From positions 1 through 64,000 of the IMG/VR virus record IMGVR_UViG_3300023202_000135: 64,000 nt of DNA, one strand, 5' to 3'. Source of the DNA: a virus. Both the position numbers and the translations under genes were made by a program. Of the stretch, positions 5,267-9,554 are shown in pieces. Each line of letters starts with the position of its first letter. The first letter of the stretch is position 1. The notes beneath the pieces are model-generated. The model was not told the DNA's origin, searched no databases, and worked only from the letters and a program-made list of their open reading frames with translations.

Positions 5267-6841
5267 TCAAAACAGCGAAATCGCTGCCTCGGGAATCATG
5301 GGTGATTCCGGAGGCGGCCAATCCTCGACCAATGTCACCGCGTGACCTTCGCTCTCGTAGGCTTCGGCGCGAGCGAGTGCATGTTCCAAAAGTTTTTTGT
5401 GGCACGTCGGCGCGAAGTCGACGACAAGCACGTCGTCGAATCCCTTGTCACGTCGCATGCTTCGTCCGAGACGCTGGAGCACGTTGGTCACGGACTTCAC
5501 GCCTTCGGCAAGAACAAGCGCGTCGATTCCGTTGACGTCTTCGCCCTCGTCCCAAATCGTAGTTGCGACCACACAGTTCGCCGTGCCCTCGCCCATGAGT
5601 TTCTTGACGAGGTTCCGGTCCGGTGTCGCTGTGTCACCCCACACCGCGTAATGCTTCACGCCGAACTCTTCGAGCAGCAGGTGCAGCCGGTTCCAGTGAT
5701 CCTTTCGACGGCAGAGCACGAGCGTCTGCCGCCCCTTGACCTCGGTGAGATACTGGACGGCGCGGACCACGCTCCGGTTGTGCGTGTCGTTCTCGATAAT
5801 CCCCTCGACGTAGGCATCGTGGTAGGGCATCTCGGATTCGTAGTGGTTCCCCTTTCGGCTGACCTTGATGACCTTCGGCAGTATCCGGCCTGACGCGTTG
5901 TCGCTCATGACCATCGCGATGCGCGGCCGTGCCGTGAGCCCTAAGTCGACGAGCGCGTCGGTGTCGACCTCGTAGATAATCTCCCCGGTCGCTGCGCGGA
6001 TACGCGTGTCGCTCAACTCCTCGTTCTTGAACGGCGTCGCGCTGAGGCCCCACCGCAGCATGGCGCCGCTCGCCATCCCGATCTCGTACCAGGAGTCCGA
6101 CGATGAGTGGTGCGCTTCATCGAGCATGAGCACCTCGAAGTTCTCGACGATGTCGCGGTACTCCGCGTCGCCGGGGACGATCTTGCCCTTGCGCTTGTGT
6201 GGTCGGAAGTGGTTCAGCGATTGCGCGGTCGCCACGATGATGTCGCCATCGGTCTCGCGCTTCCCGTCACCGATCTGTCCGACGAGGATGTCGCCTTGGT
6301 AGAATCCACAGAACGTCTCGACGGTCTGCGCGGCGAGACCCTTCTTCGACGTCACGATAAGCGAGCGCCAATTCTTCTCCTCCCACAGGTACCGGGCGAG
6401 CGCGGCCATGACGGCGGTCTTCCCGCCCCCGGTCGGGATGCGGACGATCCCACGCGGGCTCTCGAACATGGCCATGATCGCCTCGTACTGGTGATCCCAA
6501 AACTCGCCAGTGAACTTCCCGTGCGCCGGCAGGTAGTCACGGCCCATCCAGCTCGTGTCGATCTCCCCGATGTCCGGCGTCTCGATCGTGACGTCGTGAC
6601 CGGCGGCGTTGAACCATAGCTTCGCGCGCTCGCAGAGACCGGCGGGGAATGCGCGCCCGTTGAACAACGGGATCCGACCATCCCATCGTTGCTCGCGGAA
6701 CGCGCGCATGTGGTTCCGGTTCGGGTCGAGCGGGTTGGCGACGTCCTGCATGCACGACAGGATCTTCCCGATGCTGCAACCCGCGACGGTTGCCCACGCC
6801 CCTTTCACGCTGAGCGTGACCGGCGGCGGAGATTTACTCAT
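5267..6841 (-). CDS. UvsW-like SF2 DNA helicase
   Basis: 524 residues with SF2 helicase motifs in order: Walker A IPTGGGKTA (about 135-143), DEAH (241-244), SAT (LSATPF) and motif VI QRLGRSMRR. The 130-residue N-terminal extension with FREQRWDGRIPLF resembles the UvsW N-terminal DNA-binding part. In T4, UvsW unwinds R-loops and branched DNA, remodels forks and switches origin to recombination-dependent replication. AGAAGGGG precedes the ATG. It is followed (downstream) by the RHH promoter and preceded by a repeat-rich gap that could be the origin such a helicase acts on. Confidence 0.85.
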   Translation of the reverse strand: MSKSPPPVTLSVKGAWATVAGCSIGKILSCMQDVANPLDPNRNHMRAFREQRWDGRIPLFNGRAFPAGLCERAKLWFNAAGHDVTIETPDIGEIDTSWMGRDYLPAHGKFTGEFWDHQYEAIMAMFESPRGIVRIPTGGGKTAVMAALARYLWEEKNWRSLIVTSKKGLAAQTVETFCGFYQGDILVGQIGDGKRETDGDIIVATAQSLNHFRPHKRKGKIVPGDAEYRDIVENFEVLMLDEAHHSSSDSWYEIGMASGAMLRWGLSATPFKNEELSDTRIRAATGEIIYEVDTDALVDLGLTARPRIAMVMSDNASGRILPKVIKVSRKGNHYESEMPYHDAYVEGIIENDTHNRSVVRAVQYLTEVKGRQTLVLCRRKDHWNRLHLLLEEFGVKHYAVWGDTATPDRNLVKKLMGEGTANCVVATTIWDEGEDVNGIDALVLAEGVKSVTNVLQRLGRSMRRDKGFDDVLVVDFAPTCHKKLLEHALARAEAYESEGHAVTLVEDWPPPESPMIPEAAISLF

Positions 6842-7223: not shown

Positions 7224-9554
7224 TTAAGCCGGGCCCTCCATGAAATACTTGCGCATGAAGGCAACGCGTTCCGCCTGCGTGTGCAACTTCGAGTAGAAGA
7301 TCATCGTGTTCAACCGGGCAAGTTCGCGGTTCGCTTTGCCTTCGATCACCTCACGGGGCAGTACGTTGTCGAGATTCTCGCCGTACGCAATCACCTCCGT
7401 CGTCTTACCGGTGAACGCGGGGCACACTTCCCACACCTCGGTCTTCTTCTCGATCGCGCGGAGCTGTCGCTTGAGGGCAATGAGGCCGAGGTCGAACTTC
7501 ACGGCTGTTCGCTCGGGGTTGTCGATCCCCACGTCGACGGTGTCGTCGTCCTCCGGCATGAGCGGGGACAGCTCGCGAACGTGCTCGATGATCGACACCT
7601 GACGAGGCGTCAGCGCCTCCATATCGAATCCCGTCCACATGCACGAGCGGCAGCGAAGGAGGATGCCGCTTGGTGCGTAGGTGCGCTTCACCAGCCCATA
7701 GGCGTCGAGCGTGGAGAGCACGCCGCCGATCGCGCTGGGATCGAGCGACTTTTCCGGAAGCCCTGCGTACTCCTCGACCTCACCTGCCATGTCCTTCGCG
7801 GTCAGCTTGAGGAGCTGCCCGTGCGGGTGCTCGTGAAGGTACTCCCACACCTTCTCGTAGTAATCGTACTCCGGGTTGGCGCGCTTCCAAAAACCGAGAT
7901 GCAACTCCTCGGCGTATTCGTCTTGCAGCAGGATCACGTCGGCCGGCTTGCCATCGCGACCTGCCCGCCCGGCTTCCTGCGTATAATCCTCCAGCGACCC
8001 GGGGATGCCGAAGTGGACAACGGCGCGGATGTCGGGGATGTCGATGCCCATGCCGAAGGCGTTGGTCGCGACGATAATTGGCTTCGTTCCTGCTCGGAAC
8101 TTCTCCTGGATTATGGTTCGGTCGGCCTTGGTCAGGCCCGCGTGATAAACGCCGACCTGCTTCGGGCCCACGACCTCCTCGATTTGCTCGGCAACCTTCT
8201 CGGATCCATTGCGCGTACCGACGTAGACGATGTAACGTCCGGTGTCGGTGTCCCATTGGTCGGACAGTGTGCGGATGTTAGCCCACGGGTACCCGAACCG
8301 GCACTGGTAGGAGAGGTTCGGTCGGATCGGGTCACCGATCACGCGCACGTAGTCGTCTGGATCCATGCCGACCGCCTGCACAACATCGGTCTCGATGTCA
8401 GCAGTAGCTGTGGCGGTGACGGCGACCACAGGCGGGCGCTGTCCTCGCTTCGTGAGCGCGCGGGTCATATCCTTTATGCGCATGTAGGCCGGACGGAAGT
8501 CGTGCCCCCAGCGGCTCGCGCAGTTGTGATTGAGGACCCCACCTGCGAAGTAGTTATGGAACCCGGCGATGGTTAGCGCGACGACAACTCGATTGTCTCG
8601 ACCACTCTCGTCGTCTCGTTCATGATCTCCTGGTTCCAGAACCTCAACACGGCCCACCCTTTGCCAGAAAGCTCCTCCGTCTTCCGTTTGTCCCGCGCCT
8701 GCACTGCGTACGCATGGTGACTCGGACCGTCGCACTCCACCGCTAACATCATTACTTTTCTGCGCGTCTTCCGTCGAAGTTCCGCGCTGCATCCCGGGCT
8801 GCATGTTTTGGTTCGCCGGGCATTCGGGTGGAACGGGTCGCCGTAGAACAAGCAATTCCTCTCCTCCATGGATCTCGCGCGCGGCGACATACCCCCGACC
8901 TTTCACGAACAATGGGTGATCGTCGGTGAGGGTAACGCCCCCATCGGGCGTCGCGATGCGTAGTAGCTTCCGCCTTCCGACGCGCTTCACTTGGACCTGC
9001 TGAACTGTCCCGTTCACGACGCGATTACCGTCCCACGATGACACCACGTCACCCGGGGAGAGGTCTTCGATCGGTATTGAGCCGCTCGGGGTGTCGATCA
9101 GCGTTCCTACCGGGTGACAGTGCGCTTCATCGACGACGATGTAGCTGACCTTCGTGCGCATGAGGGCGCGCCGGAACATTCGCGATCGGAGACGCTCGGG
9201 GGCGACGTACATGATGTCGAGTTTGCCTACCTCCATGCGGAAGAGGCGCTTCTCGATCTCTTGCTCAGTGCAGTGCGAGTTGATGAACGAGGCCTTGACG
9301 TCGCGCTCCGCGCATTGGTCGCACTGATCCTTCATGAGTGCGATCAGCGGGCTCACCACGATCGCGCACCCGCCCGACAGGATGGCCGGGATTTGGAAGC
9401 ATACGCTCTTGCCGCTGCCGGTGGGTAGTACGGCGAGGACGTCCTTACCGGCGAGGGCGGCTTCGACGACCGGAACCTGCCCTTTTCGGAAGTCGTCGTA
9501 TCCCCAGCGGTCTTGGAGGACGCTGCGCGCGTCGTCCAGGGTCAATGTGCTCAT
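7224..9554 (-). CDS. RecQ-type DNA helicase precursor containing an intein
   Basis: 776-residue precursor; removing the intein (residues 146-344) leaves 577. The host protein has RecQ SF2 motifs: Walker A LPTGSGKS (about 43-50), VVSPLIALMKDQ, the DEAH box, TATATADIE, and motifs V-VI ATNAFGMGIDIP / QEAGRAGRDG. Spliced, the junction reads DEAH-CASRWGHDFRP, a normal RecQ motif II. RecQ helicases unwind 3'-5' and act in recombination and fork repair. The protein ends soon after a partial RQC-like region (about residues 620-690 of the precursor). The start is at the first ATG, with GAACGGAGAAC upstream. A promoter-like element lies at 9619-9645. Confidence 0.9.
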   Translation of the reverse strand: MSTLTLDDARSVLQDRWGYDDFRKGQVPVVEAALAGKDVLAVLPTGSGKSVCFQIPAILSGGCAIVVSPLIALMKDQCDQCAERDVKASFINSHCTEQEIEKRLFRMEVGKLDIMYVAPERLRSRMFRRALMRTKVSYIVVDEAHCHPVGTLIDTPSGSIPIEDLSPGDVVSSWDGNRVVNGTVQQVQVKRVGRRKLLRIATPDGGVTLTDDHPLFVKGRGYVAAREIHGGEELLVLRRPVPPECPANQNMQPGMQRGTSTEDAQKSNDVSGGVRRSESPCVRSAGAGQTEDGGAFWQRVGRVEVLEPGDHERDDESGRDNRVVVALTIAGFHNYFAGGVLNHNCASRWGHDFRPAYMRIKDMTRALTKRGQRPPVVAVTATATADIETDVVQAVGMDPDDYVRVIGDPIRPNLSYQCRFGYPWANIRTLSDQWDTDTGRYIVYVGTRNGSEKVAEQIEEVVGPKQVGVYHAGLTKADRTIIQEKFRAGTKPIIVATNAFGMGIDIPDIRAVVHFGIPGSLEDYTQEAGRAGRDGKPADVILLQDEYAEELHLGFWKRANPEYDYYEKVWEYLHEHPHGQLLKLTAKDMAGEVEEYAGLPEKSLDPSAIGGVLSTLDAYGLVKRTYAPSGILLRCRSCMWTGFDMEALTPRQVSIIEHVRELSPLMPEDDDTVDVGIDNPERTAVKFDLGLIALKRQLRAIEKKTEVWEVCPAFTGKTTEVIAYGENLDNVLPREVIEGKANRELARLNTMIFYSKLHTQAERVAFMRKYFMEGPA
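8523..9119 (-). mobile_element. intein in the RecQ DEAH box
   Basis: 199 residues inserted directly after DEAH. It begins with catalytic Cys (CHPVGTLIDTPSGSIPIEDL, block A), has block B (TDDHPLFVKGRGYVAAREI) with the TxxH-like site, and ends AGFHNYFAGGVLNHN followed by Cys+1, the canonical His-Asn and nucleophile needed for splicing. All splice residues are present, so it should be active. Between blocks B and F the intein frame is low-complexity and unlike any nuclease; the nuclease is encoded in another frame (8573-8890). Confidence 0.88.
8573..8890 (-). CDS. Vsr/DUF559-like homing endonuclease overprinted in the intein
   Basis: 105 residues in a different frame from RecQ, filling exactly the space between intein blocks B and F. 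The C-terminal part (VECDGPSHH, RDKRKTEEL, GWAVLRFWNQEI) matches the very-short-patch-repair / DUF559 PD-(D/E)xK fold, a family known to include intein-associated homing endonucleases. A degenerate zinc motif precedes it (CLFYG with the usual second Cys replaced by Tyr, then TCSPGC). AAAGG lies 8 bases before the ATG at 8890, so internal initiation inside the recQ message is plausible. Its stop falls at the start of block F. Confidence 0.7.
   Translation of the reverse strand: MSPRARSMEERNCLFYGDPFHPNARRTKTCSPGCSAELRRKTRRKVMMLAVECDGPSHHAYAVQARDKRKTEELSGKGWAVLRFWNQEIMNETTRVVETIELSSR

What the first reader, a model, noticed from the sequence alone, without database searches (positions are those of the whole stretch)
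8573..8890. Vsr/DUF559-type endonuclease overprinted on the intein linker
A homing endonuclease is normally in frame between intein blocks B and F. Here that space is read in the intein frame as low-complexity linker, while a recognisable PD-(D/E)xK nuclease is read in a second frame with its own ATG and ribosome site. So 318 bases appear to code two proteins: a linker that must stay open for splicing and a nuclease that must stay active for homing. One zinc cysteine is already Tyr.
Basis: partly seen in the sequence, partly recalled or inferred. Interest (0 to 1): 0.72.

Follow-up and report, generated by a model that had tools for sequence, protein, structure and literature searches.

The report
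Inteins with a frame-hidden homing nuclease
A self-splicing insert (intein) in a phage RecQ helicase gene carries the shortened remains of a DNA-cutting enzyme in a second reading frame, and more than a hundred other phage inteins carry an intact version in exactly the same frame, a widespread arrangement that I could not find described before.

Summary
RecQ (window 9554-7224, minus) carries an intein (9119-8523). A DUF559/Vsr-type nuclease ORF (8890-8573) lies inside it in the +1 frame (Pfam E 1.5e-12). It is not chance or sequencing error. Profile searches found 113 non-redundant phage and prophage loci (<90% nuclease identity) where the same nuclease family is overprinted on an intein, always in +1 and never in frame. 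About 1157 stops were expected in the intein frame; 1 was observed. In close pairs substitutions pile up at nuclease third positions, so the nuclease is the constrained reading and the intein "linker" its passive shadow. Hosts are mostly DEAD/DEAH and SNF2 ATPases, also clamp loaders and a terminase. First ATGs are enriched for Shine-Dalgarno sites. Some relatives are split inteins with the nuclease overlapping both halves, others are free-standing.

The window nuclease lacks about 100 residues, including the catalytic Asp invariant in full-length relatives. It is probably dead in homing, while the intein's splicing residues are intact. I found no prior report of an out-of-frame homing endonuclease in a splicing intein. 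Nearest known: ShiLan (out-of-frame HNH, no splicing domain) and "fractured genes" with split inteins.

The parts
9120..9554 (-). RecQ N-extein (aa 1-145, ends ...VVDEAH)
   Evidence: TIGR01389/TIGR00614 RecQ hits
8523..9119 (-). Intein, 199 aa, in the DEAH box (DEAH|C...HN|C ASRWGHDF); splicing residues Cys1 (9119-9117), T65/H68 of block B (8927-8916), HN (8528-8523), Cys+1 (8522-8520) all present
   Evidence: Pfam Hint_2 4.3e-6 and Intein_splicing 2.7e-4; PDB bacterial intein-like domain 2lwy 1.5e-5
7224..8522 (-). RecQ C-extein
   Evidence: an intein-free RecQ (MT835574) has DEAHC|VSQWGHDFRP uninterrupted
8573..8890 (-). Overprinted Vsr/DUF559-type nuclease ORF, +1 frame of the intein, 105 aa; degenerate zinc finger (C13..Y16..C30..C34) plus C-terminal half of the nuclease domain (E52, D54, H58, D67 kept; K41 at the catalytic Asp position)
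8849..8851 (-). Alternative TTG start, 6 nt after GAGAGG; ATG 8869 and ATG 8890 (AAGG, 8 nt upstream) are the other candidate starts; TGA at 8905-8903 closes the +1 frame upstream
8768..8770 (-). Codon for K41, where full-length relatives have the invariant catalytic Asp (11 residues before ExDG)
8717..8737 (-). Retained ExDGxSH motif (E52-H58)

Best explanation
The window holds a degraded member of a large phage family of inteins whose homing endonuclease is encoded not in the intein frame but entirely in the +1 frame of the intein gene. Inferred working of intact members: the host gene is translated as one precursor and the intein splices out, so the ATPase works. Internal ribosome entry at a start codon just after intein block B, often with a Shine-Dalgarno sequence that doubles as block-B codons, makes a separate ~200-aa zinc-finger plus Vsr/EDxHD-type nuclease. 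That nuclease cuts intein-free alleles and repair copies the intein with its hidden gene. In the intein frame the region is a passive spacer that only needs to stay free of stops. If a stop appears there, the nuclease is untouched and the host gene becomes a split intein. Shown by computation: the two frames, their register, conservation, host genes, start-site enrichment, split and free forms. Inferred: expression, cleavage, homing. The window copy has an internal deletion that kept both frames open but removed the catalytic Asp; it most likely splices and no longer homes.
For: 113 non-redundant overprinted loci; 1157 stops expected, 1 observed in the intein frame, while the third frame has 2101. 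Register always +1, none in frame. A nuclease-blind scan with the splicing domain alone: 22 of 24 recognisable inteins carry the nuclease in +1. Close pairs: substitutions at nuclease positions 1/2/3, e.g. 5/1/35, 4/3/20, 31/22/84. Splicing residues kept in nearly all. First ATG: Shine-Dalgarno of at least 5 nt in 20% against 2% of control ATGs, p 2e-14, at a median of residue 86 of the intein. AlphaFold of L103 nuclease pLDDT 92, best PDB fold I-Bth0305I, prob 1.00. Split and free forms inside the same tree. Window: DUF559 1.5e-12, positional GC, missing Asp.
Against: No expression or cleavage data. Only 41% of first ATGs have a Shine-Dalgarno match of 4 nt or more, so initiation is not explained for all. 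The window copy has no close relatives with which to measure its own selection. Its tree position rests on long branches.
Confidence: 0.86

Rival explanations
1. The nuclease is made by programmed +1 frameshifting from the helicase-intein reading frame, not by internal initiation.
For: All members are in +1, the register a +1 shift would give. Several have no clear Shine-Dalgarno site.
Against: ORFs start just upstream of an ATG (median 15 nt after the 5' stop), and ATGs have strong Shine-Dalgarno enrichment. A common register is also expected from common descent. Split and free-standing relatives need their own start.
Confidence: 0.08
2. The window's 105-aa nuclease is still active as a minimal enzyme.
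For: ExDG..H, D67 and GWxVLRFxN are intact; both frames stay open; positional GC is still nuclease-like.
Against: The catalytic Asp is replaced by Lys41, and the GGNG loop and about 100 residues are gone. The N-half is disordered in the model and there is no confident fold match. A second truncated member, L114 (102 aa, no ATG), shows the same decay.
Confidence: 0.15
3. Artefact: two sequencing indels or an assembly error created the second frame.
For: Metagenomic contig without reads to check.
Against: Same architecture in isolate genomes (MR14, phi673, CP-T1, many Vibrio phages) and over 100 contigs.
Confidence: 0.01
4. An RNA intron (group I/II) encoding a nuclease, with the intein-like translation by chance.
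For: Vsr-type nucleases do occur in introns.
Against: Intein splicing motifs are conserved in nearly all members, Pfam Intein_splicing in 43 of 46. No Rfam match in the window region or 13 relatives.
Confidence: 0.01

Closest known systems
[quoted passage not shown]
   Same: A mobile insertion in a phage gene that is open in the host frame and hides a homing-type endonuclease in another frame.
   Different: ShiLan has no splicing domain (it stays in the methylase), is HNH, and has no detectable ribosome site. Here the insert is a bona fide intein, the nuclease is Vsr/DUF559-type, and first ATGs are enriched for Shine-Dalgarno sites.
Fractured genes: split inteins with an EDxHD/Vsr homing endonuclease between the halves (Dassa et al. 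2009; paper not held, cited through PMC12350094 and general knowledge)
   Same: Same nuclease superfamily and same partnership with inteins. L067, L069 and L078 found here are of this kind.
   Different: Here the host gene and intein are contiguous, and the nuclease is read through the intein coding sequence in +1.
Conventional large inteins (LAGLIDADG or HNH in frame between blocks B and F)
   Same: Nuclease sits at the usual endonuclease insertion position of a Hint splicing domain.
   Different: Nuclease is out of frame and separately translated. L019 and L064 carry both types in one gene.
I-Bth0305I (EDxHD/Vsr-type intron homing endonuclease, PDB 3r3p)
   Same: Best fold match of an intact overprinted nuclease.
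   Different: I-Bth0305I belongs to an intron (PDB name: mobile intron protein); the present ones belong to inteins and carry one or more zinc fingers and an NPM-type motif.

Membership tests
Intein (Hint splicing domain) | Cys1, block-B TxxH, C-terminal HN and Cys/Ser/Thr +1 | tested here: met
   Window: C, TDDH, HN|C. Family: C1 103/110, TxxH 108/110, HN or SN 109/110, +1 Cys/Ser 109/110
Intein (Hint splicing domain) | Profile match to Hint/intein splicing domain | tested here: met
   Window Hint_2 4.3e-6, Intein_splicing 2.7e-4 (both below curated cut-offs); 43 of 46 hosts match Intein_splicing
Intein (Hint splicing domain) | Protein splicing activity | not testable with these tools
   needs expression
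Vsr/EDxHD (DUF559) homing endonucleases | Sequence match to DUF559/Vsr | tested here: met
   Window DUF559 1.5e-12, vsr TIGR00632 6.5e-4
Vsr/EDxHD (DUF559) homing endonucleases | Complete catalytic set including the Asp before ExDG | tested here: not met
   Window: K41 in place of Asp. Intact relatives have it: D142, E153, D155, H159 invariant in the 34 full-length nucleases of A6
Vsr/EDxHD (DUF559) homing endonucleases | Fold of the catalytic domain | tested here: inconclusive
   Intact L103: I-Bth0305I prob 1.00. Window: only the C-half folds, no confident match
Vsr/EDxHD (DUF559) homing endonucleases | Cleavage of the insert-free allele | not testable with these tools
   needs biochemistry
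ShiLan-type hidden-endonuclease insertions | Insert without splicing domain, HNH nuclease | tested here: not met
   Insert has intein splicing domains and a DUF559 nuclease
Fractured gene / split intein | Host gene split into two ORFs | tested here: not met
   Window ORF 9554-7224 is continuous. Met in L067, L069/70, L078/79
Conventional large intein | Endonuclease in frame between blocks B and F | tested here: not met
   Nuclease in +1 in the window and in all overprinted relatives

The most novel reading that the evidence does not exclude
A major, unannotated class of phage inteins homes by a nuclease written in the +1 frame of its own splicing gene, with the ribosome entry site encoded by intein block B. 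This is the evolutionary source of 'fractured' split inteins: because the nuclease does not depend on the intein frame, a single stop in the spacer splits the host gene without harming homing.
Probability: 0.7. Interest if true: 0.9.

Novelty: new variant of a known kind. Interest (0 to 1): 0.85.

Why it matters
Inteins are textbook single-frame elements. This shows a widespread class in which splicing and homing functions share the same bases in two frames. Annotation misses the nuclease: all eight annotated isolate records inspected list only the host gene there. It gives a concrete, testable route from contiguous to split inteins, which are major protein-engineering tools. It also offers a large natural set of long same-strand overlaps, about 200 codons, preserved across host genes and GC contents from about 29 to 62 percent.

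Tried and rejected
Single-protein scans with the window nuclease, intein or RecQ in viral contigs found nothing real; the four weak hits look unrelated, e.g. L002 in a 94-aa ORF of another kind. Three first calls failed on a wrong frame and one on a bad reference. The plasmid search gave only DUF559 genes and anti-phage Hhe proteins. Introns were rejected by Rfam. Openness of the second frame in the window alone was rejected as proof (P = 0.16). Aligning the window's CLFYGDPFHPNARRTK with the NPM segment, as MAFFT did, is possible, but I prefer the zinc-finger reading (C..Y..CSPGC). Correlated intein, nuclease and extein distances do not separate co-mobility from joint descent, so I put no weight on them. 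Literature: ten searches found only PMC11855218 as close prior art; bioRxiv and most subscription journals are not held, so absence of a report is not proof.

Full report
OBSERVATION. The window lies in a 90,692-base virus record. On the minus strand an uninterrupted 776-aa ORF (9554-7224) is a RecQ helicase (TIGR01389 1.4e-99) carrying a 199-aa intein (9119-8523) exactly after the DEAH box. An intein-free RecQ (MT835574) has DEAHC|VSQWGHDFRP there. All residues needed for splicing are present: Cys1, TDDH in block B, HN|Cys. It matches DUF559 (1.5e-12) and, by sequence, PDB 3hrl and weakly the I-Bth0305I domain 3r3p.

IS IT CHANCE? For the window alone, the open second frame has P = 0.16 under synonymous shuffling, so openness proves nothing. 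Base composition does: in the exteins GC at RecQ codon positions is 0.64/0.41/0.82, in the overlap 0.76/0.50/0.50, which fits the nuclease frame (log-likelihood -210) much better than the RecQ frame (-235) or the third (-260). The decisive evidence is comparative.

RELATIVES. tblastn of the nuclease in phage genomes hit 39 records, 38 of them inside genes annotated as helicase, 'coil containing protein' or P-loop protein. Those genes have inteins in the DEAD/DEAH box (DE|C...HN|CHH), and the nuclease hit is in the +1 frame of the gene, not in frame (checked in eight representatives). A profile of these nucleases found 80 viral and 7 genomic loci. With eight annotated phages this made 95 loci, of which 86 have the host frame open through the whole nuclease in the same register. 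A second scan with the 55-aa C-terminal core, window first, gave 393 confirmed relatives; all of the best 80 are overprinted in +1 inside an intein ORF. After removing nucleases over 90% identical, 113 remain. Over their 26,247 codons synonymous shuffling predicts 1157 stops in the intein frame; 1 is seen; the third frame has 2101 (1959 expected). To guard against bias I also searched with the splicing domain alone: of 24 recognisable inteins among 30 loci, 22 carry the nuclease, always +1, none in frame.

WHICH FRAME IS CONSTRAINED? In close pairs substitutions concentrate at the third position of the nuclease codons (5/1/35, 4/3/20, 31/22/84 for positions 1/2/3), and the nuclease protein is more conserved than the intein spacer (0.98 against 0.87, 0.81 against 0.56). 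So the nuclease is the selected product and the spacer its shadow, kept only free of stops. Intein cores are kept: Cys1 103/110, TxxH 108/110, HN or SN 109/110. The nuclease lies wholly inside the intein in 107 of 110 and covers about 70% of it, ending 4-26 codons before the HN in most.

EXPRESSION. The first ATG lies at a median of 86 residues after Cys1, just behind block B. 20% have a Shine-Dalgarno match of 5 nt or more against 2% of 3086 control ATGs (p 2e-14); 41% against 11% at 4 nt or more. In several members the GAGG belongs to the codons of the block-B motif DEVL. Internal initiation is therefore most likely, though many members have no visible site.

WHAT THE NUCLEASE IS. Intact members have CxxC...CSxxC zinc fingers, an NPM-type motif, GGNG, and D-(10)-ExDGxSH. 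In 34 aligned members D142, E153, D155 and H159 (L103 numbering) are invariant. The AlphaFold model of L103 (pLDDT 92) matches the I-Bth0305I catalytic domain best (probability 1.00, TM by target 0.68, Foldseek E 1.4e-3). Hosts: 46 scanned show ResIII, DEAD, Helicase_C, SNF2, DNA polymerase III delta' and one terminase, plus RecQ here. Two hosts, L019 and L064, also carry a conventional in-frame LAGLIDADG element at another place.

EVOLUTION. The nine exceptions are informative. L067, L069/70 and L078/79 are split inteins: helicase-N plus IntN, then the nuclease overlapping both, then IntC plus helicase-C. L082 is split by a single stop inside the nuclease. L043 and L099 have the nuclease free-standing immediately upstream of an intein-less helicase, and L102 is free-standing. 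In a nuclease tree the split (two places) and free (three places) forms scatter among 111 overprinted ones. The root is unknown and many forks are weak, so the direction (overprinted to split) is an inference.

THE WINDOW COPY. It is 105 aa where relatives have about 200-260. It keeps a degenerate finger and the C-terminal half (E52, D54, H58, D67), but lacks NPM, GGNG and the catalytic Asp (K41 instead). Only residues 48-104 are predicted to fold, with no confident PDB match. L114 shows an independent truncation of the same kind. The most likely reading is an in-frame deletion (for both frames) that killed homing and left a splicing intein on its way to a mini-intein. By splicing domain it is nearest to L181, another DEAH-site intein (42% identity), and by nuclease to L127/L131/L164, while its extein is only about 20% like their hosts.

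LITERATURE. Ten searches found one close precedent, the ShiLan element (PMC11855218): an out-of-frame HNH in an insertion without splicing domain. Vsr/EDxHD nucleases between split-intein halves are known as fractured genes (Dassa 2009, not held; cited in PMC12350094). None of the papers found describes an out-of-frame nuclease in a splicing intein, within a library that lacks bioRxiv and most subscription journals. Novelty is a new variant of a known kind (intein with homing endonuclease), but a widespread one with a surprising genetic layout.

Noticed in passing
window 5267-6841 (-): A second DExH helicase of the same phage, close to recQ, has an uninterrupted ...MLDEAHHSSSD motif, the type of site that carries the overprinted inteins in other phages: an apparently empty site in the same genome.
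   Followed up: no
L019:1245-4880 and L064:1017-4460: Helicase genes with two homing elements: a conventional in-frame LAGLIDADG element and, separately, the intein with the out-of-frame nuclease.
   Followed up: partly
L067, L069, L078: Split inteins in a phage helicase with the nuclease ORF overlapping the end of the IntN gene and the start of the IntC gene; possible new split inteins for engineering.
   Followed up: partly
L043:2950-3594 and L099:2968-3579: Free-standing nuclease of the same family directly upstream of, and overlapping by about 35 nt, an intein-less helicase gene.
   Followed up: partly
L114:2331-5780: Second truncated case: 170-aa intein with a 102-aa nuclease remnant, no ATG, catalytic Asp missing.
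   Followed up: partly
L131, L164, L185, L189, L192: Overprinted inteins at sites other than DEAD/DEAH (GLGKF|C, VGIG|C, FGVP|C, IGIA|C, DEAA|C); host proteins not identified.
   Followed up: no
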